A stretch of DNA of 64,000 nt from Planktomarina sp. (GTDB lineage Bacteria; Pseudomonadota; Alphaproteobacteria; Rhodobacterales; Rhodobacteraceae), in assembly GCA_020630015.1 (NCBI GenBank), contig JAHDCF010000007.1:1-64000 (forward strand), written 5' to 3'. The position numbers were made by a program, and so were the translations under genes. The notes under the pieces are model-generated. The model saw only the letters and a list, made by a program, of their open reading frames with translations. It was not told the origin of the DNA and did not search any database. Position 1 is the first letter of the stretch. Each line of letters starts with the position of its first letter. This document shows, piece after piece, positions 13,592 to 44,148 of this stretch.

Positions 13592-14767
13592 TCAGGATGC
13601 GCCGGCCAAACCGCCATTCAATTTTGTCAAAATAACTTGGGCGGCTGTGCGCAGACGTGGTAAAATTCCGCCACGCCCAACGTCTTCGGTGGCAACAAGC
13701 GGCACCCGCGTGTCAGGAATGCCAGGCGTTTCGATCACCAGTTCACCCAATTTGTCGCCTTTAGTGATTGGGGCTTCGATTGGGCCTTGGTATTCTATGG
13801 ATGTTTTCATTTTATCGGCCGCGGCGACGGGCACCAGAATTTTGGGTTCTCCATCGATGGTCATCCCAACCGTGCGTTGCTCCCCCATCCACACTTGGGC
13901 CTTTGCAATTTCGGTGCCTTCAACCCCAAAAGATTTTTGCGCAAATTGGCGAAATGCCCACGCAACGATACGTTCCGATTCCTCGGCCCGCGCAGCAGCG
14001 GAATCAAGTCCGGTTATTGCAAAAATTACGCGACGGTCCCCTTTCTTCGCGGAACCCACCAATCCGAAACCGGCCTCTTTGGTATGTCCGGTTTTCAATC
14101 CATCTGCACCAATCCCCAGTGACAACAATGGATTGCGGTTTTGTGTGTTGCTGGGTGCGCGGCCATCAAATTCAAACTCGCGTTCGGCAAACATCGGATA
14201 ATAGGTTGGGAAATCGCGAATGATACCGTCGGCCAAAGTTACTAAGTCACGCATCGACATGCGTTGCCGCGGATTTGGCCAACCATTGGAATTGGCAAAG
14301 CTTGAATTTTCCATTCCCAAGACAGCAGCCCGATCATTCATCATCTGCGCAAAACCGGCCTCTGATCCGTCAAAGGCCATCGCTTCGGCCAGAACGGCGC
14401 TGGCATCATTGCCTGACAATACGATGACACCACGAACCAGATCCTCCACGGTGACACGATCTGTTGTGTCCAAGAACATGGTCGACCCGCCATAGTTCAT
14501 CGCGTGTTGCGAAACGCGCAACTTTTCATTCCATTGTAACCGCCCATCGCGAATGGCCTCAAACGTCATGAAAAGTGTCATCAATTTTGACATGGATGCC
14601 GGTGGAACGGGTTCATCACCTTGTTTATTCAACAAAACCGTGCCGGTCGATTGATCCAAAACAAAGGCGGCGCGTGCTTTGGTTTCAAAGGCGGCTGCGC
14701 CGCTGCCCACCCATAGGATCGCCATGCAAACGCATGCGAAAGATCTTGCCACCCATGATGCCATCAC
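13592..14767 (-). CDS. dacC: D-alanyl-D-alanine carboxypeptidase
   Basis: VPPASMSKLMT (SxxK), VLSGNDASAVLAE (SxN), DGLKTGHTKEAGFG (KTG). Confidence 0.93.
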   Translation of the reverse strand: MMASWVARSFACVCMAILWVGSGAAAFETKARAAFVLDQSTGTVLLNKQGDEPVPPASMSKLMTLFMTFEAIRDGRLQWNEKLRVSQHAMNYGGSTMFLDTTDRVTVEDLVRGVIVLSGNDASAVLAEAMAFDGSEAGFAQMMNDRAAVLGMENSSFANSNGWPNPRQRMSMRDLVTLADGIIRDFPTYYPMFAEREFEFDGRAPSNTQNRNPLLSLGIGADGLKTGHTKEAGFGLVGSAKKGDRRVIFAITGLDSAAARAEESERIVAWAFRQFAQKSFGVEGTEIAKAQVWMGEQRTVGMTIDGEPKILVPVAAADKMKTSIEYQGPIEAPITKGDKLGELVIETPGIPDTRVPLVATEDVGRGGILPRLRTAAQVILTKLNGGLAGAS

Positions 14768-31998: not shown

Positions 31999-33312
31999 AT
32001 GGGTTTGTACGAATATTTCTTAGGGGCCCAAAGCGATCTTGAAAAGTTCTTTCCAGCGCCCAACCTTTTGAACCCTGACCTCGGTTTGCATTCATTTGCG
32101 GATGTTGTTGGCCACTTCACCAATCAATCGTTGAAGGCAGACGGATTTATAGATGCATCTGCGAAGGTAGAGCTGAACGCCGGACAAGTGATCGTCGCGC
32201 TGCATAATATGCCCGACGAAGACACGGCCGCGATTTTCAGTGATTTGCATCAACAATTCTTCAGTGCTGAAAATGCGGGAATGGCCCTGAATGGGAAAGC
32301 CTTGCTTGAACAGCTGAATGTATGGAACCCGATGGAAGGCTATCCCGTGAATGGAAATCCGGCGGATGGTGATTGCAAATGGCACCTTTTTCCGCCGCTG
32401 GGTTTGAATGTGATGGGTCAGATGGGCATGTTGTTGATGCACTACCCGCCCTGGCAAGCATTGGAAAACGCAACCTTTATCGATTGCATGACCGTGCATC
32501 GTTGGAACACGATCTTACATGCGGTTGGAATCCCCACAGACCAAGTCAGCTTTTATCGCACGATCGTGGATGTGAATCCCATTGCGGCCCCCGGTTCAGG
32601 GCAAAGCGAATACCCCAATGATTATTTTCCCATCATGATGGCATCAGCATTTTTCGATGGCGCGCCTGATCGCAATTACATTCGTGGAATGTTGGGGTTC
32701 TACTTGAACGGGCCGAATGCCGCGGGAGAAGAGTACACGTTGCCATTGTTGGTGTGTGGATCCCCCCTTTATGACCCGCAAGCCCCCGGGTGGTTTCGAA
32801 CGGCTTTCAAAGAAGAAATGCCCACCGATGAAAACGGAACTCCGGTATCGAACGTGTTGCAAACCGGAAGTGTACAGATCAATCCGGCCTATCCCAGAAA
32901 GACACCGTACATGATCGCCAATCACATGATTGCGGCAGGGGTGACGGGCCGCTGTACCGATGATCCATCAAAAATTCCTGACATCCGCATGTATGAGGCG
33001 CAAGACTGTACCGCCGCATCATTTCTTTATGAATATGTGCAAAACCCCAATATTGATCCGGCCGAAGCAAAGGCACGCGCGGCAACGCGGTGGTTTGGCA
33101 ATCCCGAAGGTATCGGGCCGCCAACACCGCCTGACCCAAAGGATGCGCAGATTTTATGTGCCTTGGCCCAAATGGATCTTTACTTTAGCCCGACACCGAC
33201 ACCCCATCCCACCTATACCTTTGAAGAGGCGATGGAACGTTGCGCGGGGGCCGACAACAAAACTTGCGGCTGTAAAATCGGGCCGGGCAGTGGGGATGAC
33301 GGCGCGCCTTAA
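31999..33312 (+). CDS. 437-aa protein of unknown function, translationally close to the phosphoesterase
   Basis: Starts 3 bp after the phosphoesterase stop; long ORF with high coding quality; C-terminal Cys cluster CAGADNKTCGCKIG; no recognised family. Confidence 0.75.
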   Translation: MGLYEYFLGAQSDLEKFFPAPNLLNPDLGLHSFADVVGHFTNQSLKADGFIDASAKVELNAGQVIVALHNMPDEDTAAIFSDLHQQFFSAENAGMALNGKALLEQLNVWNPMEGYPVNGNPADGDCKWHLFPPLGLNVMGQMGMLLMHYPPWQALENATFIDCMTVHRWNTILHAVGIPTDQVSFYRTIVDVNPIAAPGSGQSEYPNDYFPIMMASAFFDGAPDRNYIRGMLGFYLNGPNAAGEEYTLPLLVCGSPLYDPQAPGWFRTAFKEEMPTDENGTPVSNVLQTGSVQINPAYPRKTPYMIANHMIAAGVTGRCTDDPSKIPDIRMYEAQDCTAASFLYEYVQNPNIDPAEAKARAATRWFGNPEGIGPPTPPDPKDAQILCALAQMDLYFSPTPTPHPTYTFEEAMERCAGADNKTCGCKIGPGSGDDGAP

Positions 33313-36300
33313 TCCAGAACTTGGAATGTTGGCACCGCCTCTTTGATCCCCTTAAGCTGCAACGGATCGCGCGGTGTGCATGGGATGTGATCTTTGATCA
33401 GTTCAAATGTGTCTTTGGACACCAAAATTGTTCCGGGGGCCGCGGCGGTTTCCAAACGCGCGGCCAAATTCACCGCGCGCCCGATTATGGTGTAATCCAT
33501 GCGGGCGCGACTGCCGAAATTCCCCACGGCACAAACCCCTGTGTGAATGCCGGTGCGGGCTTGCAGCTTTACGCCGTAATCCCTTTCCCATTCGCCTTGC
33601 AAATGTGACAAACGGGTGCGCATTTCTTTGGCCATTTCCACACAGGCCAAGGCATCTTGTTGGGTGCCACGGGTTTCCGGATCACCAAAGAAAATCAAAA
33701 TTGCATCGCCCACAAACTTGTCAATGGTGGCGCCATGGGCAAGTGCGACATCCGACATTTCCGAGAGATACGCATTCAAAACCGTTTTCAACGTATTGGC
33801 GTCCAAGTTTTCTGCGATTTCGGTAAAACCCACCAAATCCGAAAAGAAAACCGTCAAGGTTTTCCGTTCGGACTGCACGCCCACGTCTTGGTCTTGATGA
33901 AACATCGATCGATAGACCTGAGGGGAAAGATATTTTGACAGCTTATTTGCAACGGCGGCCAACGCCTCTGACTTCGCAGACAGTTCCTGCGTGCGATCTG
34001 CGATCTCTCGTTCCAGACCTTCGTAAAGCTGCGCGTTTTCCATTGAAATCGCTGTTTGCGCCGCCAACATTTCGGCAATGCCCAGATGATCTGTTACAAA
34101 TGCACCGGGTGTTAGATTATTTTCAAGATACACAATCCCGACAACGGAATCTGCACGCTGTATTGGCAGGCACAGGGCGGACTTGGTGGCACGCGTTTTG
34201 AAAAATGGATCTTGACCAAACCTTGGATCTTGAACCGCGTGATCCAAACAGACAGCCGTTTTGGTCTGATAAACATAATTGATAAGGGACAATGGCAAAT
34301 CCAATGGGCTTGCTATCAGGGCATTTTGGGGGGTGATCTTGTCACCAGTCTGCGCATCATAATCCGTTTCGATGCGATACCCATCTTCATCATGGTTCAA
34401 GAATACACCGCGCTGCGCGCCCGTGTTTTGAAGCAAAATTAGCATGGACCGTTGCAACAGCTTTTCTTGCGAGACCTCACCCGAAATGGCCCGTGCAGCT
34501 GACATGACTGCCTCAAGATTCATGGCGTCTTGTGTGGTGCCGGAATCGCCGTGTTTGGATTGGGATGTTGGGATTGCCCCACCCATTTGCGAGACCTTGC
34601 CCTGCGCGCCCCACCGGTCAAACAGCGCACGTGCCGCATCCATGTGGGCTTTGGCGGCGATGATCAGGCCTGCACCAGTGCAGATGGAAGCAGCCATTTC
34701 ATGGGCTTTGGCTTGATCGCGGATATACCCACGATTGCCCGCCGCATCTATTGCGCATTCGAACTGTTGCAATGCGGTGGTGATGTCACCGTTCAGGGCC
34801 GCATATTGCCCGTTCATCATCATCGCCAAATGGCCATAATTTTCGGGGTTGTGGTTCGCCCAAAGGGTCATCTTTGCCAGATGCCCATCCATCTTGGTGC
34901 GCAACTTTTTGGCCTTTGCGGGCGTGGCGGTTTGTAATTGATGGGCATAGGTTAAAAACGCCAAAAGGCGGAACCGCACCGATTGGGGCAGGGACATCAC
35001 ACTGTCGATCAGCGGTTCTTGCGCCTCAATAAAGGGCTGTGCGCCCTCGTAATCATCATACATGCAATGCACTTCGGCTTTGTAGATATTGTAATTTGCT
35101 ACTCCTGTCAGGAAGGATCGATCCTTCATTCCGGCCAAACATTCGGCTTCGTCAAACCCATCATCACTCAGTGAGAATTGATCATGGGTGGCGCCGGCAA
35201 AGTTTTTGAGCAATTGCAAAAACAATGTGCCGGAATCCAAACTGTCGCGATATTGGCAGTCACGCACGATTTCCATGTAATCTGAGTGCTGCGAAATGGC
35301 TGACGGAATATCAAGCCTCGGATCCCAAATAATGCAATCTTGGGCGTTATAGGCCAGATACAAAAGATCCCCTGAATGATATCCAGATTCAATTCCGCGT
35401 TTGAACCAATCCGTCAGGCTGCCCCAATGATGGGTCCAGTGGTGAATGAACATGCCATAAACGTAAATGATCCGGGATTTCAGCCCGATATCTTCGAATG
35501 TATCATTCATCTTCAAAGCCAATTTGCCGTATTCAAGCCCCTTGGCGGGATCATCCAACCCCCCACACAGCAACATTCCATAAGCAGCAAAAGCAAAGGC
35601 AGTTTCGGCTGAATTTCCGTGTAGCAACGACAGATTGACGGATTTCAAAACCACATAGTAGAACATGTTGCCCGCGCCAGATAAGAACGCTGCGGGGAAG
35701 ATTTCCATCAGCAATTCGACAGAAACGGTTATCGTTTCATCATCCATCCGTTGGGAAAAAGCCAAGTCGGCAACGCTGCGATCGCCTAAATTTTTGGCCA
35801 CGGCTTTGATTTCGGCCTGCAGCTGTGCATCGCTGATTGATTGCTTGATTGGAATGCCCAAAAGGGACAACCCCTGCAAGGCGGCATCAATACTTTGCTT
35901 CATCCGCCCCAAGGTCGAATACTGCCGCGTGCGCATGGCTAAGATTTTCGCCTTCTCCAGCGGTGAAGCAACATGTTCCAAAGCGCGAGTCAATTCTGCG
36001 TCCGCGGTGTCATGTTGGCCCGTCAAATACGTGGCCTGCGCCAAGGACATGGACACATCTTTTGCCAATTCATATGTATTGGCCCAAGCGTCTTCTGCCA
36101 AAAATTTCTGCGCATTTTGCGCATAATGAAGCGCCGCCGGATATGCCGCTGAATTATGCGCCGACCGTGCTGCCATCAGATTGAAACTGGCAAGACCTTC
36201 TTGTTCTTTCGGATCCGCAATCAATGCGCTGCCATCATTGAGATGGCGCACAATGATCATCAATTGGTCCAAAGCGGGCGGGCCAGAGATATTTTGCAAC

Positions 36301-38459
36301 AAGGTTTGCCCGACTTTTAAATGCAGTTTGGGTCGATCTTTTTGTTCAACCAGCTCATAGGCGGCTTGGTGCAAGCGATCGTGCTGGAATTTAAACTTTG
36401 GACTAAGCCCGGTTTCATCCGTCACCGTGACTTGTGATCCCGCTGTATCATAAAGTTGATAGCCATCGTCCAAGGGCAAAATCAAATTACGAGCGATGGC
36501 CGGCATCAAAGCTTTGCCCAAGGCAGATTTGTCTTCGCCCGACAGCAAAACCAATGTGTCCATGTCAAAGCTGTGCCCGATGCAGGCCGCGAACTTAAGC
36601 ACATCGGTTGTGGCTTTGGGGAATTGCCCTAGAATACCCATCAAAAAATCGACGACATTTTCGCTGATTTCGGCGCGCTTGACCTTGAAAAGGTCACAGG
36701 TCCAATACCCTTTATCCATATCCAAGTGGATGATCCCATTATCGGCGAATGTTTCCAGAATTTCGCGTACAAAAAATGGATTTCCGTCGGTTCGATCATA
36801 GATCGTTTTGGCCAATTCGCGGCCTTCGGGCCCATCATGCAACAACGCATCAACCACAAATTGCTCAACATCAATTTGGCCAAGGGGGGATAGGGATATT
36901 TCGTCAACCGGTCGGTGCTTAGCAATTTCGGTTCGTGTCAAAGTGACCAAATGGTTCCCGTCCACTTCGTCACTGCGATAAGCGCCAAGGATAAATAGGT
37001 TTGAAATGTCACGCGAACTGCCCAAGCTTTGCACCAGGCTCATCGTTGGCGCATCGCTCCATTGAAGATCATCTAGATAAAGGATCAATGGTCGTCCGGC
37101 CTGTGAAAAGACACGCACCAAATTTAAAAAGCACAACTGCAGGCGGTTTTGCGCCTCGGTTGGGGGCAATGGCAACAGCGGGGGTTGTGGGCCAACGATC
37201 AATTCAAGATCTGGCAACACCTCCACCAAGGCTTGAAGATTTGCGCCCACGGAATTTTCAATCTGGCTTTTCCATTTTGCCAGACGGCTTGGCGGTTCCA
37301 GCAACAGTTCATGAACCAATCCCGAAAATGCCGCTGTAATCCCGGCATAGGGTTTTGCCCTTTCGAATTGGTCAAATTTGCCGCGCAAAAGATATCCTTT
37401 GGATCGCAAAACAGATCTGTCCAAGGCATCCACCAAGGCTGATTTCCCCACACCAGAACGCCCAGCGATCAGGCAAATCCGCGTATCGTTTGAGATGGCA
37501 TCTTCAAACAATGCTTCAAGCTGCGCCAGTTCAGCATCGCGTCCATAAAGAACTTGCGGGATATGAAAGATGGAGGAGACATCTTTTTGGCCCACGTCAA
37601 ATTCGGCGATGTGTCCGTGGTGTTCGAAGGCTTGCAAGGCTTGGTTCAAGTCTTGCAGCAGTCCAAAGGCACTTTGGTACCGATCCGCTGGATTTTTTTC
37701 CAACAGACGTTTCACAATTGCCGTCAAAGCCGTGGGAACGCGGGCTGCGGCATCATCTGGGAATTGCGGTTTTTGGGCGATGTGGGCATGGGCCCATTCC
37801 CGACTGTTGTGCGCTGTAAATGGCCGTTGTCCATAAAGCAGTTCAAAAAACACAACGCCAAGTGAATATAGGTCTGATCGATGGTCCATATCATGGGCAA
37901 CACGCCCCGTTTGTTCCGGAGAGATATAGGCAAGTGACCCCAACAATGGCCGTGCCCGTCGCTGATATTGATATTCGCGCGATAAGGTTGAGGCATTGTC
38001 AAAGTTCATCAACGATGCCGTCCAATCACCGTCGTTGATCAAAATATTCGCAGGTGCGATATTTTTGTGAAGGATATCCCGTCCATGAACGGTCACCAAC
38101 GCCTGCGTGATCTGGGCGACGAGGCCCATCACCCGATCCAAAGGCCAAGTTCGATGGCGCCCAGCATCGATGAAGTTTGATAAAGGCAGGCCATTCACAG
38201 GGGAAACAATGATGGGTGAGCCGCCCCCATCTTGGGCCAGATCCGTAACCGGCAGAATTCCAGGTTGATCCCGAAGACTGTTTAAAAGCCTGAATTCACG
38301 TTCAAGCCGCCGTATGTCCGATGCATCTGGATCAGAACCATTCAATACTTTCAGCAAAACGGGTTGATCTGCTGTGATATCACGTCCCAACAAAAGCGTG
38401 CAGTCAGAGAAAGCCTCTATTTTTTGGTCAATTTCAAATCCAGGAAGGTCCGAGGTCAT
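33309..38459 (-). CDS. 1716-aa multidomain protein: kinase-like domain, AAA/ORC-type ATPase, TPR-like region, GAF, class III adenylate/guanylate cyclase
   Basis: Kinase-like LLKVLNG...HKNIAPANILI...GSLAYISPEQTGRVAHDMDHRSDLYSLGVVFFELL; AAA CLIAGRSGVGKSALVDAL...LILYLDDLQWSD; GAF ALCLPIQRADSVVGIVYLEN; cyclase LTVFFSDLVGFTEIAE...IDKFVGDAILIFFGDP...GRAVNLAARLE. Confidence 0.92.
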   Translation of the reverse strand: MTSDLPGFEIDQKIEAFSDCTLLLGRDITADQPVLLKVLNGSDPDASDIRRLEREFRLLNSLRDQPGILPVTDLAQDGGGSPIIVSPVNGLPLSNFIDAGRHRTWPLDRVMGLVAQITQALVTVHGRDILHKNIAPANILINDGDWTASLMNFDNASTLSREYQYQRRARPLLGSLAYISPEQTGRVAHDMDHRSDLYSLGVVFFELLYGQRPFTAHNSREWAHAHIAQKPQFPDDAAARVPTALTAIVKRLLEKNPADRYQSAFGLLQDLNQALQAFEHHGHIAEFDVGQKDVSSIFHIPQVLYGRDAELAQLEALFEDAISNDTRICLIAGRSGVGKSALVDALDRSVLRSKGYLLRGKFDQFERAKPYAGITAAFSGLVHELLLEPPSRLAKWKSQIENSVGANLQALVEVLPDLELIVGPQPPLLPLPPTEAQNRLQLCFLNLVRVFSQAGRPLILYLDDLQWSDAPTMSLVQSLGSSRDISNLFILGAYRSDEVDGNHLVTLTRTEIAKHRPVDEISLSPLGQIDVEQFVVDALLHDGPEGRELAKTIYDRTDGNPFFVREILETFADNGIIHLDMDKGYWTCDLFKVKRAEISENVVDFLMGILGQFPKATTDVLKFAACIGHSFDMDTLVLLSGEDKSALGKALMPAIARNLILPLDDGYQLYDTAGSQVTVTDETGLSPKFKFQHDRLHQAAYELVEQKDRPKLHLKVGQTLLQNISGPPALDQLMIIVRHLNDGSALIADPKEQEGLASFNLMAARSAHNSAAYPAALHYAQNAQKFLAEDAWANTYELAKDVSMSLAQATYLTGQHDTADAELTRALEHVASPLEKAKILAMRTRQYSTLGRMKQSIDAALQGLSLLGIPIKQSISDAQLQAEIKAVAKNLGDRSVADLAFSQRMDDETITVSVELLMEIFPAAFLSGAGNMFYYVVLKSVNLSLLHGNSAETAFAFAAYGMLLCGGLDDPAKGLEYGKLALKMNDTFEDIGLKSRIIYVYGMFIHHWTHHWGSLTDWFKRGIESGYHSGDLLYLAYNAQDCIIWDPRLDIPSAISQHSDYMEIVRDCQYRDSLDSGTLFLQLLKNFAGATHDQFSLSDDGFDEAECLAGMKDRSFLTGVANYNIYKAEVHCMYDDYEGAQPFIEAQEPLIDSVMSLPQSVRFRLLAFLTYAHQLQTATPAKAKKLRTKMDGHLAKMTLWANHNPENYGHLAMMMNGQYAALNGDITTALQQFECAIDAAGNRGYIRDQAKAHEMAASICTGAGLIIAAKAHMDAARALFDRWGAQGKVSQMGGAIPTSQSKHGDSGTTQDAMNLEAVMSAARAISGEVSQEKLLQRSMLILLQNTGAQRGVFLNHDEDGYRIETDYDAQTGDKITPQNALIASPLDLPLSLINYVYQTKTAVCLDHAVQDPRFGQDPFFKTRATKSALCLPIQRADSVVGIVYLENNLTPGAFVTDHLGIAEMLAAQTAISMENAQLYEGLEREIADRTQELSAKSEALAAVANKLSKYLSPQVYRSMFHQDQDVGVQSERKTLTVFFSDLVGFTEIAENLDANTLKTVLNAYLSEMSDVALAHGATIDKFVGDAILIFFGDPETRGTQQDALACVEMAKEMRTRLSHLQGEWERDYGVKLQARTGIHTGVCAVGNFGSRARMDYTIIGRAVNLAARLETAAAPGTILVSKDTFELIKDHIPCTPRDPLQLKGIKEAVPTFQVLD

Positions 38460-38472
38460 TTTACCTTGTCTT

Positions 38473-38488
38473 TGTGTCCTAGGTCACA
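38473..38488. promoter_or_regulatory. CRP-like palindrome TGTGT-N6-TCACA (9/10)
   Basis: tgtgtcctaggtcaca, 14 bp upstream of the giant cyclase start codon and about 60 bp from the divergent gene. Confidence 0.6.
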
Positions 38489-38549
38489 GAAATGACTGTC
38501 ACACCCGTTGTATCATTGCAATTATAAACCACCAGGGGATGAAAAGGTG

Positions 38550-39362
38550 ATGGGGACGTTTCGGTATTTTGGGTATGGATCGAACATGGATTTTGCCGCC
38601 TTGCGCGCAAAAGGTGTGGTTCCCATTGCTTCGTTCAGGGCGCGATTGCCGGGATGGCGGTTGCGATTTAATGTTGAACATTTTTTTCGCCACGAAGGTG
38701 GCGTGGGAAACATCGAACGCACCAACAATCCCTGTGATGCTGTTTTGGGTGTCATACATTTATGCGAAAATGCAGATCTTGCGGCTTTGGACAAGTTGGA
38801 AGGGTTCGGGATTGGATATGACCGGATCACCGTTGATGTTTTAACAGAAACTGGAAATGCATCGGCACAAACTTATGTGGGGTTGCCTGCGTATATATGC
38901 GACACCGATCTTCCAACGGCCCGGTATCGCAATATTTTGGTGCGTGGCGCGCGATCTGTGGGATTGGATCCTGACTATGTCGAACGTTTGGAAACGATGA
39001 CCGTGATGCCAAAACAATCTCATCCACCTTTTGCAGCACCCAAGGAGGCGTTGCTTATGGATCATACCCAGCTGGAACACCATCAAACTGTTTTGGCCGG
39101 TCATGTTTTTTGTATGAAGGACGTTCGCTTTGCGCATGAATTGGCCCGTGACTGGTTCGGTGGCAAAGAAGTGACGCAATTTCATTTACGCCGGATGGAC
39201 ACCAGCACCGGAAATGAGATGCTGCATGAATTTTTGTCGGATGATTTGCACCGTGATCAACGCGACTTTTTAAACACGTATCTGCATGCTTTTGCCGAAG
39301 AATACAGGCACATTGCGAAATTCAACTATGCAGGGTGTCCAGAACAGATGATTTTAAGCTGA
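38550..39362 (+). CDS. Gamma-glutamylcyclotransferase-like (AIG2/GGCT fold) protein
   Basis: FRYFGYGSNMDFAALRAKG...RLRFNVEHFFRHEGGVGNIERTNNPCDAVLGVIHLCENADLAALDKLEGFG. Confidence 0.8.
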   Translation: MGTFRYFGYGSNMDFAALRAKGVVPIASFRARLPGWRLRFNVEHFFRHEGGVGNIERTNNPCDAVLGVIHLCENADLAALDKLEGFGIGYDRITVDVLTETGNASAQTYVGLPAYICDTDLPTARYRNILVRGARSVGLDPDYVERLETMTVMPKQSHPPFAAPKEALLMDHTQLEHHQTVLAGHVFCMKDVRFAHELARDWFGGKEVTQFHLRRMDTSTGNEMLHEFLSDDLHRDQRDFLNTYLHAFAEEYRHIAKFNYAGCPEQMILS

Positions 39363-39384
39363 CATACAACGACAGGGAACCAAC

Positions 39385-40101
39385 ATGTGTAACAACCACG
39401 CAGACGCTTTGCCCCACGGGCAAATAACCGAACCACTGAAAGATATCTTCTTTGTCGCAGGCACGCGCAAGTGGCATTTTATGGATTTGGATTGGCAGTT
39501 CAGCCGCAACATGACCATCGTGCGCGAAGGGGAGGACTTGACCCTGTTTAATGCTGTGCGTCTGACGGATGAAGGGTTGGCGGATATCGCAAAGTTAGGC
39601 ACCATCAAAAACGTTGTTCAAGTGGGCGGTCTGCACGGCGTGGACGACGCGTTTTACAAGGATACTTTCGGCGCAGCATATTGGGCGCAACCCGGCGCAG
39701 GCCAGGCCGGCGTGGCGGTTGATAAAACATTGGTTGAAGGTGGCGAAATGCCAGTGAAAGGGGCAGAGCTGTTTCAGTTCAAAACCACCAAAGTTCCTGA
39801 AACCGTGCTGCGATTGGATCGTGATGGTGGGGTTTTGATCGCCTGTGATGCGCTTCAAAATTACTTGGCGCCTGATGAATTTTTCTCTGACCAATCCGCA
39901 CAAGTGATGACCGGCATGGGTTTCTTTACGCCCGCGAATGTTGGCCCGGTTTGGATGCAGGCCGCCGAACCCAAAGCGGATGATTTCGCGGCTCTCAAAA
40001 ATTGGACGTTTGAGCATGTGTTTTGTGGGCATGGCGCCCCGATGTTGGGCAATGCATCCCAGGCCTATGGCGATACCTTCAAACGATTGTTTGACGTTTG
40101 A
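39385..40101 (+). CDS. DUF4336/MBL-like protein apparently lacking the HxHxDH metal motif
   Basis: MTIVREGEDLTLFNAVRLTDEGLADIAKLGTIKNVVQVGGLHGVDDAFY...GGVLIACDALQNY...FEHVFCGHGAPM. Confidence 0.55.
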   Translation: MCNNHADALPHGQITEPLKDIFFVAGTRKWHFMDLDWQFSRNMTIVREGEDLTLFNAVRLTDEGLADIAKLGTIKNVVQVGGLHGVDDAFYKDTFGAAYWAQPGAGQAGVAVDKTLVEGGEMPVKGAELFQFKTTKVPETVLRLDRDGGVLIACDALQNYLAPDEFFSDQSAQVMTGMGFFTPANVGPVWMQAAEPKADDFAALKNWTFEHVFCGHGAPMLGNASQAYGDTFKRLFDV

Positions 40102-40260
40102 TGACATAAATCCTTTGGGCGGATCTCCCTGCCGCCCTGGGAAAACCCCAACCTTTGTGTCGGATCTTGATACCCACACCGGCAAAAAGGGGCGGGCTTG
40201 CGGCGGCATCTTTTCCCTTGGATGCCGCTGCTTGAGGTTTGGCACAAAGCTTGGCCCGAT

Positions 40261-40276
40261 TGTGATCTGGATCACA
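40261..40276. promoter_or_regulatory. Perfect CRP-type palindrome TGTGA-N6-TCACA
   Basis: tgtgatctggatcaca, about 40 bp upstream of the MBL-fold gene. Confidence 0.75.
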
Positions 40277-40325
40277 GAACCACCCATTTGACCAAGTTAC
40301 AAATGGGGGAAAAGTGATATGTGGC

Positions 40326-41150
40326 GTGAACATCCAGTTTGAAATCCTTGGCGCAAGAGGGGGCATTCCCGTTTCAGGCCCCCACTTTCAAGAGTTCGGC
40401 GGCGCGACATCGTGTTATAAGATCGCAACCGATCAAGGTTTCATGATTTTAGACGCAGGCACCGGAATTGTGCCATTTGGCCAAGATTTGGTGGCCAGGG
40501 GTACAGGGGAATTCTGTGTCGACATTCTTTTTACCCATGCGCATCTGGATCACATGCAAGGGTTGCCGTTTTTTGCACCCCTTTATGATCCAAGATTTGA
40601 TATCCGGCTGTGGGCCTGTGAAGAGGTGCTGGACCAACCTTTGGTTGCGGTTCTGGATCGCATTTTGGACAGCCCGGTTTGCCCCATTCGTCGCGATCAC
40701 TTTAAAGCGTGTGTGTCGTTTCATGCCATCCCGCTTGCGGCGTGTTTCGCGCCACGTCCAGGGTTCAAGGTTCAGGCGATGGAACTGACGCATCCGGGGG
40801 GCAACGTGGCCCTGAAGGTAAATTGCGCAGGGGCATCCGTGGTTTACAGCGGCGATTTCGAACATGGGAAAAATGCCGTCGACACTGCGTTTTCGACGTG
40901 GTTGAGGGGTGTGGATTTGGCCGTTCTGGATTGCACCTATGATCCTGATACTTATGTGCCCGCCCGTGGGTTTGGCCATGCCCATTGGCGGGCTGTTGGT
41001 GATATCGCATCGGAATGTAAGCGGTGGGTCGGGGTGCATCACCATCACCTTTGTGATGATGCAAAATTAACGGCGGTTGAAAGGGATATCATGACGACCT
41101 TTCCCAATGGTGGTCTTGGCCGCGAAGGGGCTGTCTTTCAATTGGAGTAA
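40326..41150 (+). CDS. MBL-fold metallohydrolase
   Basis: FEILGARGGIPVSGPHFQEFGGATSCY...ILDAGTG...FTHAHLDHMQGLPFF...VVYSGDFEH...HHHHLCDD. ORF track starts at 40314; internal start near MQFEI-type position possible. Confidence 0.82.
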   Translation: MNIQFEILGARGGIPVSGPHFQEFGGATSCYKIATDQGFMILDAGTGIVPFGQDLVARGTGEFCVDILFTHAHLDHMQGLPFFAPLYDPRFDIRLWACEEVLDQPLVAVLDRILDSPVCPIRRDHFKACVSFHAIPLAACFAPRPGFKVQAMELTHPGGNVALKVNCAGASVVYSGDFEHGKNAVDTAFSTWLRGVDLAVLDCTYDPDTYVPARGFGHAHWRAVGDIASECKRWVGVHHHHLCDDAKLTAVERDIMTTFPNGGLGREGAVFQLE

Positions 41151-41193
41151 CCCCCAACAGATCCCTGTTGTGTTTGAATTTCCCAAAAAAACA

Positions 41194-41221
41194 AAGGCCC
41201 CAGTGTTTTTCCTGGGGCCTT
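41194..41221. terminator. Bidirectional terminator between convergent genes
   Basis: AAGGCCCCAG-tgtttttc-CTGGGGCCTT flanked by cccaaaaaaac and tcattgtgttt. Confidence 0.85.
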
Positions 41222-41248
41222 CATTGTGTTTACTGCCAAAGAGCCTTT

Positions 41249-41932
41249 TCAAGCTGCGCCGGCTTGGTTGCTGGCGACCAGTTTCCCTTGCAAATCCCCT
41301 GCAAAGCTTAGGTCCAGTGCCTGTTTGAAATTTGGGTCACGTTTGGTCAGGGTTTTTAACTCTTCCACATGGACCCGCATAAATTTGGATGGAACGCTCA
41401 GGATCACTGTTGCTGAAGCCGGATCACCGGAAAAACAAGTCATTTCACCGATGAAGCTGCCGGGCTGTACAGTCGCAATAACTTGGTCATTGACGATAAC
41501 ATCCGCCTGTCCTTCGGCCAAATAGAACAAGTTTTCATTGGCACGGCCCTGTTGTGTTAATTCGGTGCCCGCGGCCCCTTGCATCCAATGGCTGCGACGC
41601 ATCAATTGCTTGGCCTCCATTTTGGGCAGTTGCGGTAATTTTGCGCGCAGGAACGCATCTTCTTCTGGTGAAAACTTGATGGTGCGGGTGATCAACCACC
41701 GCCGTGTCATGCCGAAAACAGAAAGGCTGGCCATGCTGATCTGAATAACCAAACTTGCAATGTTAAACGCGTGATAAAGGCTGATGGTCACCATCAAAGC
41801 GGCCGTCAAATTCATCAACGTATAGGTCAGGGATTCCCCGCGAATAAGTCCTGCCTGCAAAAGCAGATAAGACAGGACGTAAAACATGGCGCCGCCGATA
41901 CCAATAATGGATGTGATTTGTTCTGGTGACAT
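41249..41932 (-). CDS. Three-TM membrane protein with C-terminal cyclic-nucleotide-binding-like domain (Popeye-like architecture)
   Basis: TMs ITSIIGIGGAMFYVLSYLLLQAGLI / TYTLMNLTAALMVTISLYHAF / IASLVIQISMASLSVFGM then NENLFYLAEGQADVIVNDQVIATVQPGSFIGEMTCFSGDPASATVIL. Confidence 0.75.
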   Translation of the reverse strand: MSPEQITSIIGIGGAMFYVLSYLLLQAGLIRGESLTYTLMNLTAALMVTISLYHAFNIASLVIQISMASLSVFGMTRRWLITRTIKFSPEEDAFLRAKLPQLPKMEAKQLMRRSHWMQGAAGTELTQQGRANENLFYLAEGQADVIVNDQVIATVQPGSFIGEMTCFSGDPASATVILSVPSKFMRVHVEELKTLTKRDPNFKQALDLSFAGDLQGKLVASNQAGAA

Positions 41933-41989
41933 GGTACTTGCTTTCGTTTGGTTGTTTTGAAAGCGATACCCCGTAAATCCACCCAGAAC

Positions 41990-42005
41990 TGTGACGTCAT
42001 TCACA
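41990..42005. promoter_or_regulatory. Perfect CRP-type palindrome TGTGA-N6-TCACA
   Basis: tgtgacgtcattcaca, between the Crp-type gene stop and the 3-TM cNMP-binding gene start. Confidence 0.75.
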
Positions 42006-42010
42006 AAAGA

Positions 42011-42673
42011 TCAAAAATATTCAGATCCGATGATCGTGGCCAAATCGTCGGGTTGGCGGATTTTTATATGCCGTCTTTGCAATTCAATGGTATCAGAATT
42101 GCGCCAATCCGACAGGATGCGTGACACGGCTTCGCGACTGCCGCCTACAAATTCGGCAATATCTGCGTGGGACATGCGTATGATCCCATCTGGTTCCATC
42201 GCCGCCAATTGCAAAACCTTGCTTGCCAATCTTTGCTCTAGGTTCAAAAAATTTGCGGCATGCAATTGTTCTGACATTAGCCGCATCCGGCGCGCCAAAA
42301 GTTGCAATAATTCCATGGCAAGGGCGGGCGCGCGCGCAAATATACTTTCCAGATCGGCGCGCGATACAGACCGCAAAACGCAATCTGTTTTGGCATGCAC
42401 AGTTGCGGTGCGCAGACCACCGTCTAACAATCCAATCTCACCCACACTGTCACCCGTTGCTAAAATATCCAGCGCCCTTCGCCGTCCATCTTCGGTCAAG
42501 ACAGACACCTGCAATTGCCCAAACTCAACCATATACATGTGATCAGATGCATCACCTTGATCGAACAAATTTTCCCCCGCCGACAGGATTTGTTTTTGGG
42601 CGATTTTTTGAATTTCTTCCTTCAGCCCGTCAGAGGCATCTTGGAACAATCCTTTGAAGGTGGGGGAAATCAT
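42011..42673 (-). CDS. Crp/Fnr family transcriptional regulator, Crp-like (no N-terminal Fe-S cysteines)
   Basis: MYMVEFGQLQVSVLTEDGRRRALDILATGDSVGEIGLLDGGLRTATVHA cNMP cassette; HTH MSHADIAEFVGGSREAVSRILSDW. Confidence 0.88.
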   Translation of the reverse strand: MISPTFKGLFQDASDGLKEEIQKIAQKQILSAGENLFDQGDASDHMYMVEFGQLQVSVLTEDGRRRALDILATGDSVGEIGLLDGGLRTATVHAKTDCVLRSVSRADLESIFARAPALAMELLQLLARRMRLMSEQLHAANFLNLEQRLASKVLQLAAMEPDGIIRMSHADIAEFVGGSREAVSRILSDWRNSDTIELQRRHIKIRQPDDLATIIGSEYF

Positions 42674-42759: not shown

Positions 42760-44115
42760 TCAAATCGCCAGACTGTGGGGATGTTCAAATGATCTGCATT
42801 GATCAATCTCAGCCGCGATCAGGCGGGCCGCGGCCAAGAAGTTTTCCTTGATCTGCAAAACACCGTTTTCCTTAATCAATAGATCGGCAAATTTGGTCGT
42901 CAGGCGATTGTGTATTTGTTCAAGATCGTTTGTGAAATCGGGAAACCGCCGGGCCATTTCGGGGATGTTTACAGCACCATCACACATAATGGCATTGATC
43001 AAGGCGGCGAGGAAGCAATCATCCTTCGACAAGACAATCCCTTTGTGACCAGCCAAGCCAGTTGTTCTGACCCTGTCAGTATAAGCGGCGGTAGAGACTG
43101 CGTTTTGCACATATCCTTGCGCAAACTGCGAAATGGCTGAGGCCCCCATTCCCAACAGTGTGGGGCAGGGATCATCAGTGTATCCCTGAAAATTGCGTCG
43201 CATTGTGCCTTGGGTCCATGCCCGTGTCAGGCTGTCACTGGGAAGGGCGAAGTGATCAATTCCCAACGGGGTATATCCATGGGATGTCAGCCGCACTTTT
43301 GCCAATTGCGCCATTTTGTATCGGCTTTCAGGATCAGGAAGTGTTTCATCCGGGATCATCACCTGCCGTTTCGAAACATGCGGCACATGGGCATAACCAT
43401 AAAGCGCCAATCGATCCGGCCGCAGGGATATAATGCGATCAATTGTGTCGCTGATGCTTTGGTTTGTTTGAAACGGCAAACCATACAACAGGTCAATGTT
43501 CAGACTATTGACCCCATTTTGACGCAACGCACCAATCACATCTGCCGTTTGTTCAAAGCTTTGTTCGCGGCCAATGGCCGTTTGCACCTGATTGTTAAAA
43601 TCTTGCACACCAACACTGGCGCGGGTCATGTTGTGATCGGCCAAAACTTTCAGCACTTTTGGGTTGGCTTCTGTCGGATCTATTTCAACGGAAAACTCAA
43701 AATCCGAGACAGGCTGAAATCTTTCAAATACACGATCCAATAATCGGGTCATCAGGTCTGCGGTTAACAAGGTTGGCGTGCCACCCCCCAGATGCAACCG
43801 GCGCATGCCCAGCCCTTTGGGCAAGCAGGTGTCATAGGCCTCAAGCTCTTGCAAAAGGACGTCCACGTAAGCCTCAACCGGGTTAAGGGTTTGTGTCCCC
43901 TGTGTTCGGCATGCGCAAAACCAACAAAGGCGGCGGCAAAATGGAATGTGAATATAAATCGAAACCGCTTCATCCGGGGAAATCGTTTTCAACCAATCTT
44001 TTTGCATCGGGTCACCCAACCCGTTTTCAAACCGATTGGCCGGAGGATAGCTGGTATAACGCGGCACCTTGGCATCAAAAAGCCCATGCGCGCGAAGTAT
44101 ATCGATATGTTCCAT
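42760..44115 (-). CDS. hemN: Oxygen-independent coproporphyrinogen III oxidase
   Basis: PRYTSYPPANRF...VSIYIHIPFCRRLCWFCACRT...LHLGGGTPTLL...FSVEIDPTEA...GVQDFNNQVQTAIGR...NIDLLYGLPFQT. Confidence 0.93.
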   Translation of the reverse strand: MEHIDILRAHGLFDAKVPRYTSYPPANRFENGLGDPMQKDWLKTISPDEAVSIYIHIPFCRRLCWFCACRTQGTQTLNPVEAYVDVLLQELEAYDTCLPKGLGMRRLHLGGGTPTLLTADLMTRLLDRVFERFQPVSDFEFSVEIDPTEANPKVLKVLADHNMTRASVGVQDFNNQVQTAIGREQSFEQTADVIGALRQNGVNSLNIDLLYGLPFQTNQSISDTIDRIISLRPDRLALYGYAHVPHVSKRQVMIPDETLPDPESRYKMAQLAKVRLTSHGYTPLGIDHFALPSDSLTRAWTQGTMRRNFQGYTDDPCPTLLGMGASAISQFAQGYVQNAVSTAAYTDRVRTTGLAGHKGIVLSKDDCFLAALINAIMCDGAVNIPEMARRFPDFTNDLEQIHNRLTTKFADLLIKENGVLQIKENFLAAARLIAAEIDQCRSFEHPHSLAI

Positions 44116-44148
44116 TCCGGCTGCATACAAAACTCAGAAAAGCAGGTT

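What the first reader, a model, noticed from the sequence alone, without database searches (positions are those of the whole stretch)
33309..42673. Self-contained cAMP signalling neighbourhood: giant cyclase, Popeye-like cNMP sensor, Crp regulator, MBL hydrolase and three CRP-type palindromes
Within 9.4 kb lie a class III cyclase with apparently intact catalytic motifs, a Crp-type regulator whose cassette keeps the Arg (GEIGLLDGGLRTATV), a 3-TM protein ending in a cNMP-binding-like domain, and an MBL-fold hydrolase. TGTGA-N6-TCACA palindromes stand before the cyclase (38473, 9/10), the MBL gene (40261, 10/10) and the 3-TM gene (41990, 10/10). Sequence shows the genes and sites. Class III cyclase and CRP consensus are established knowledge. 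That they form one circuit (make, sense, transcribe, perhaps degrade cAMP) is inference.
Basis: partly seen in the sequence, partly recalled or inferred. Interest (0 to 1): 0.82.

Follow-up and report, generated by a model that had tools for sequence, protein, structure and literature searches.

The report
Single-cyclase cAMP–Crp gene neighbourhood

Summary
The genes and palindromes are there as described. The circuit idea is largely supported by comparison, with corrections. (1) The cyclase is the only class III cyclase found in the genome; its nearest solved relative is CyaB. (2) The site 3' of crp (41990) is a conserved element: 38 of 44 related crp loci carry TGTGA-N6-TCACA (27 exact) within 260 nt of the crp stop, against 10 (0 exact) in 531 kb of background. 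A -10-like GGCATANT follows at class II spacing. (3) Homologues of the 3-TM gene lie near a cyclase far more often than chance (8/18, expected 0.23), as do MBL homologues (4/7 in the family; 10/40 in the class, expected 1.4). One relative has cyclase, 3-TM and crp in a row. (4) The MBL model's best solved match is YhfI, the template used for the cAMP phosphodiesterase Rv1339.

Corrections: "Popeye-like cNMP sensor" is not supported: no Popeye match, and all 19 homologues lack the phosphate-binding Arg. Genome-wide, the palindrome is no commoner than in congeners without a close Crp homologue. The 38473 site fits activation of the divergent gene, or repression of the cyclase, better than cyclase activation. 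The four genes are not co-conserved as a block. Nothing biochemical was tested.

The parts
33309..38459 (-). Class III adenylate cyclase, 1716 aa: kinase-like domain (catalytic motifs HKN and NFD, probable pseudokinase), AAA_16/STAND ATPase, TPR-like, GAF, Guanylate_cyc domain; only PF00211 cyclase found in the genome
   Evidence: Pfam; nearest PDB CyaB 3r5g with KFVGD and MDYTIIGR motifs aligned; one match in genome; kinase motifs read by eye
38473..38488 (+). TGTGTCCTAGGTCACA, CRP-type site with 1 mismatch between cyclase and divergent GGCT gene; TATCAT at 38511-38516 fits class II activation of GGCT; 14 nt from the cyclase ATG
   Evidence: geometry is inference
38550..39362 (+). AIG2/GGCT-like gene (likely true start ATG 38550), divergent from the cyclase
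   Evidence: start by eye
39385..40101 (+). 238-aa protein, no Pfam match
40261..40276 (+). TGTGATCTGGATCACA, exact CRP-type site; TACAAA at 40298-40303 at class II spacing, directed to the MBL gene
   Evidence: full score in top 7% of window positions in this orientation
40314..41150 (+). MBL-fold hydrolase (Lactamase_B_2), residues H75 H77 D79 H80 H160 D181 (metal-ligand pattern) invariant among 9 homologues; probable cyclic nucleotide phosphodiesterase
41249..41932 (-). 3-TM protein with C-terminal cNMP-binding-like domain lacking the phosphate Arg (GEMTCFSGDPASATV)
41990..42005 (-). TGTGAATGACGTCACA, exact CRP-type site 5 nt after the crp stop, directed to the 3-TM gene; TATCGC at 41968-41963 at class II spacing
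   Evidence: full score in top 4% of window positions
42011..42673 (-). Crp-type regulator: cassette GEIGLLDGGLRTATV with Arg; recognition helix SREAVSR

Best explanation
This is a locally wired cAMP module. The large cyclase, gated by its STAND/TPR/GAF part, makes cAMP (inferred from catalytic motifs). The adjacent Crp binds cAMP and TGTGA-N6-TCACA (inferred). Bound at -41.5 it activates, as a class II activator, the 3-TM gene and the MBL gene, and probably the GGCT gene divergent from the cyclase; at that last site it may also block the cyclase's own promoter. The MBL enzyme would hydrolyse cAMP, giving negative feedback. The 3-TM protein is a membrane partner of cyclase systems whose degenerate cNMP domain probably does not bind cAMP in the normal way. 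Shown: gene content, single cyclase, recurrent linkage, conserved site and -10-like element beside crp. Inferred: all activities and the direction of regulation.
For: Single PF00211 cyclase found in the genome, CyaB-like. 3-TM homologues near a cyclase in 8/18 loci, expected 0.23, p 1.8e-12; MBL 4/7 (p 7e-7) and 10/40 (p 6e-7); Crp 2/4 (p 0.002); 0/20 control stretches. G617 has cyclase, 3-TM and Crp in tandem. TGTGA-N6-TCACA within 260 nt 3' of crp in 38/44 loci, 27 exact, versus 0 exact in 531 kb of background. The 37 aligned sites show GGCATANT at -14 to -7. Crp keeps the cassette Arg and an RE..SR helix. The MBL model matches YhfI 6kns best, and Apyc1; YhfI is the template that PMC9293780 used for the cAMP phosphodiesterase Rv1339.
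Against: No genome-wide enrichment of sites beyond congeners without a close Crp homologue. In the other crp loci the conserved promoter drives other cargo and no cyclase is near in most. The 38473 site has one mismatch and a weak -10 score. The MBL superfamily also holds RNase Z, PhnP and PqqB, nearly as close. Loci in one sample share ancestry, so the p values are optimistic. 4 of 12 other Crp/Fnr genes also had a site within 300 nt on either side, 1 exact. No expression or binding data.
Confidence: 0.64

Rival explanations
1. The regulator and its sites are a real Crp circuit, but cyclase, MBL and 3-TM are neighbours for other reasons; Crp may answer to cGMP or to no nucleotide, and the MBL hydrolyses some other phosphodiester.
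For: Across the family most crp loci with the conserved site have no cyclase or MBL nearby; cassette RTA and loss of the T127 equivalent (by eye) do not fix nucleotide choice, and the Crp-like Clr answers to both cAMP and cGMP (PMC10127613); MBL is equally an RNase Z/PhnP relative.
Against: Cyclase linkage of the MBL and 3-TM families is far above chance, and this is the only class III cyclase found in the genome.
Confidence: 0.22
2. A Pycsar-like anti-phage module: cyclase plus a membrane effector with a cyclic-nucleotide domain, with the MBL as an Apyc1-like off switch.
For: PADLOC PycC models hit the cyclase (4.5e-29) and PycTIR models hit the 3-TM protein's cNMP domain (3e-15); the MBL fold resembles Apyc1; PycTM effectors are described as receptors with a transmembrane domain (PMC11224242).
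Against: The cyclase has adenylate-type Lys/Asp and is closest to CyaB; no PycTM model hit; the 3-TM domain lacks the Arg that PycTIR uses (against PMC11224242); a Crp regulator and its sites are integral; linked cyclases are CHASE2, AAA and response-regulator fusions. The PADLOC hits are to shared domains: Crp itself hits PycTIR.
Confidence: 0.05
3. Chance: palindromes at background frequency beside unrelated genes.
For: Genome totals equal those of congeners.
Against: Positional conservation beside crp and the aligned -10-like element; 2 of 3 exact genome copies here.
Confidence: 0.05

Closest known systems
Sinorhizobium meliloti Clr / Cya cAMP circuits (PMC10127613, PMC10463352)
   Same: Adenylate cyclases feeding a Crp-type regulator acting at class I/II-like promoters in an alphaproteobacterium
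   Different: Clr core site is GTNNCNNNNGNNAC and there are several cyclases; here TGTGA-N6-TCACA, one class III cyclase, genes adjacent, plus MBL and 3-TM
Pseudomonas aeruginosa CyaB (3r5g)
   Same: Catalytic domain aligned along its length with the adenylate motifs
   Different: Front end here is pseudokinase-AAA-TPR-GAF; that CyaB's front end differs is from own knowledge, not tested
Rv1339 / YhfI atypical class II phosphodiesterases (PMC9293780)
   Same: Lactamase_B_2 fold; YhfI is the top structural match
   Different: Weak family score (NF041851, 21 bits against cut-off 400); activity untested
Popeye (POPDC) proteins
   Same: Three TM segments followed by a domain of cNMP-binding fold
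   Different: No PF04831 match; the domain matches CRP/PKG-like cNMP domains; likeness is architectural only
CBU_0592-type membrane proteins (NF047864)
   Same: N-terminal TM domain matches above cut-off
   Different: Here joined to a cNMP-like domain

Membership tests
Class III adenylate cyclase | PF00211 domain with two metal Asp, adenine-selecting Lys and Asp, transition-state Asn/Arg | tested here: met
   residues read from the CyaB alignment
cAMP-Crp regulators | cNMP domain with Gly-Glu and Arg, plus Crp HTH | tested here: met
cAMP-Crp regulators | Curated CRP equivalog score (NF008732) | tested here: not met
   91.7 bits against cut-off 266: Crp-like, not filed as an equivalog of E. coli CRP
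cAMP-Crp regulators | TGTGA-N6-TCACA operator at class I/II position | tested here: met
   comparative only:
cAMP-Crp regulators | cAMP-dependent DNA binding | not testable with these tools
   needs EMSA
Popeye domain proteins | PF04831 domain | tested here: not met
   no match at E 0.01
Canonical cNMP sensor (3-TM protein) | Phosphate-binding cassette Arg | tested here: not met
   absent in 19/19 sequences, Gly-Glu kept
Rv1339-type cyclic nucleotide phosphodiesterase | NF041851 curated score | tested here: not met
   21.3 bits against cut-off 400; fold and metal-ligand pattern fit
Rv1339-type cyclic nucleotide phosphodiesterase | cAMP hydrolysis | not testable with these tools
   needs assay
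Pycsar | PycC cyclase with pyrimidine-specific residues plus PycTM or PycTIR effector | tested here: not met
   adenylate-type motifs; no PycTM hit; effector Arg absent

The most novel reading that the evidence does not exclude
A Crp regulator found in about a sixth of the family genomes sampled keeps a class II promoter immediately downstream of its gene, and that slot carries interchangeable cargo: in this genome a cyclase-linked 3-TM protein with a cNMP domain that has lost its phosphate Arg, in relatives a putative small RNA without an Rfam match or a small protein. Crp would thus directly couple its signal to a swappable effector.
Probability: 0.5. Interest if true: 0.68.

Novelty: new variant of a known kind. 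Interest (0 to 1): 0.55.

Why it matters
cAMP–Crp wiring in this family is thinly described in the open literature searched (searches found nothing on point; PMC4344238 states that R. sphaeroides is not predicted to have an analogue of CRP). A genome with one class III cyclase, a Crp, its sites and a candidate phosphodiesterase side by side is a tractable minimal system. It also singles out a cyclase-linked 3-TM family whose cNMP domain has uniformly lost its key Arg, and a conserved crp-adjacent promoter that seems to drive a small RNA in relatives.

Tried and rejected
Genome-wide counts of the palindrome as evidence of a regulon: rejected, since congeners without a close Crp homologue have similar counts. 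Popeye membership: rejected. Pycsar membership: rejected. A control set of other Crp/Fnr genes had a site with at most one mismatch within 300 nt on either side in 4/12, 1 exact, so some proximity may be common to Crp-like genes; that control is looser (two flanks) than the crp test. The cyclase query was typed by hand with a few non-native residues at its start; the aligned region is native.

Full report
OBSERVATION. The 3-TM gene probably starts at ATG 41932; the GTG at 42004 would put the palindrome inside the gene. The genome (2.88 Mb) holds three exact TGTGA-N6-TCACA copies. Two are here, and the third lies inside an ORF resembling a phage tail tape measure by eye. From half-site frequencies 2.4-2.9 exact copies are expected genome-wide, so the total is at chance, but two of three in 9.4 kb is not (p about 3e-5). 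The one-mismatch excess over the reversed pattern (110 vs 26) is shared by congeners that have no close Crp homologue, so it is not evidence for a regulon.

THE CYCLASE. 1716 aa: kinase-like, AAA_16, TPR-like, GAF, Guanylate_cyc. Its catalytic domain is closest among solved structures to P. aeruginosa CyaB, with the adenylate-type Lys and Asp conserved. The kinase motifs HKN and NFD, read by eye, suggest a pseudokinase. It is the only class III cyclase found in this genome, which is 96.6% complete.

THE CRP AND ITS SITES. Profile searches gave 51 of 298 family genomes with this Crp type. In 44 loci other than the window, 38 have the palindrome with at most one mismatch within 260 nt 3' of the crp stop, 27 of them exact. 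The background is 10 sites, none exact, in 531 kb. In the window the same slot is filled by the 41990 site, 5 nt after the crp stop. Alignment of 37 of these sites shows TGTGA-N6-TCACAGA and, at fixed distance, GGCATANT at -14 to -7 if the site is centred at -41.5. That is class II activator geometry. Applied to the window, the model favours 41990 towards the 3-TM gene (top 4% of positions) and 40261 towards MBL (top 7%). The 38473 site scores better towards the divergent GGCT gene (top 14%, TATCAT one base off) than towards the cyclase (top 44%). A class II start for the cyclase would fall inside its coding sequence, so repression or no effect on the cyclase is more likely than activation.

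LINKAGE. Homologues of the 3-TM protein lie within about 8-9 kb of a class III cyclase in 8 of 18 loci, where cyclase counts and genome sizes predict 0.23; all eight are in single-cyclase genomes. The linked cyclases checked carry different sensor parts, AAA or CHASE2. G617 has cyclase, 3-TM and Crp in a row. MBL homologues are near a cyclase in 4 of 7 family loci and 10 of 40 class-wide loci, and near a cNMP-binding protein in 6 of 7 family loci; control stretches 0 of 20. The four genes as a set were seen only in the window.

THE 3-TM PROTEIN. Confident model (pLDDT 92); the C-terminal domain matches CRP and PKG cNMP domains. In all 19 sequences Gly-Glu is kept and the phosphate Arg is replaced, while the Crp proteins, the SulP-type protein and most other cNMP proteins listed from such loci keep an Arg. 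It is therefore unlikely to bind cAMP in the canonical way. No Popeye match.

THE MBL PROTEIN. Confident model (pLDDT 91). Top structural match YhfI; RNase Z, PhnP, PqqB and Apyc1 also match. Paper PMC9293780 used YhfI as template for Rv1339, a cAMP phosphodiesterase. Phosphodiesterase activity on cAMP is a fair guess from linkage and fold, but not shown.

VERDICT. A plausible, partly corrected local cAMP circuit: a new variant of a known kind. The strongest new evidence is comparative conservation of the crp-adjacent promoter. The weakest links are nucleotide specificity, MBL substrate and the role of the 3-TM protein.

Noticed in passing
L183, L184, L186, L188, L192, L194, L200, L208 and others, 3' of crp: The Crp-type promoter beside crp is followed by a putative small RNA with a conserved GAGCCAUGUG...CACAUGGCUC terminator-like hairpin and C-rich segments; no Rfam match in the 8 loci searched.
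   Followed up: partly
L079, L185, L187, L199, L202, L204, L210, L212: In other loci the same slot holds a small ORF of about 45-70 aa with a W[IV]..DR.FR.AQ-like motif; in L078 and L182 a different small protein resembling DUF1127 by eye.
   Followed up: partly
L108:8908-11136: SulP-type transporter with STAS and cNMP-binding domains between a cyclase and a 3-TM homologue; proteins of similar size with cNMP domains lie near 3-TM homologues in L110, L113 and L114.
   Followed up: partly
L077:8824-14402: Crp and an AAA-type cyclase next to YcaO and TfuA genes, with a one-mismatch CRP-type site at 14415 and a like one in L078 at 14714.
   Followed up: no
L103 and L105 (congeners G046, G121): Congeners without a close homologue of this Crp carry a distant MBL homologue, a stand-alone 113-117 aa cNMP-binding protein and a cyclase together.
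   Followed up: partly
window 42760-44130: hemN upstream of crp is also missing in nearly all congeners (a close match in 2 of 20 genomes, own included), so this stretch may be accessory.
   Followed up: no
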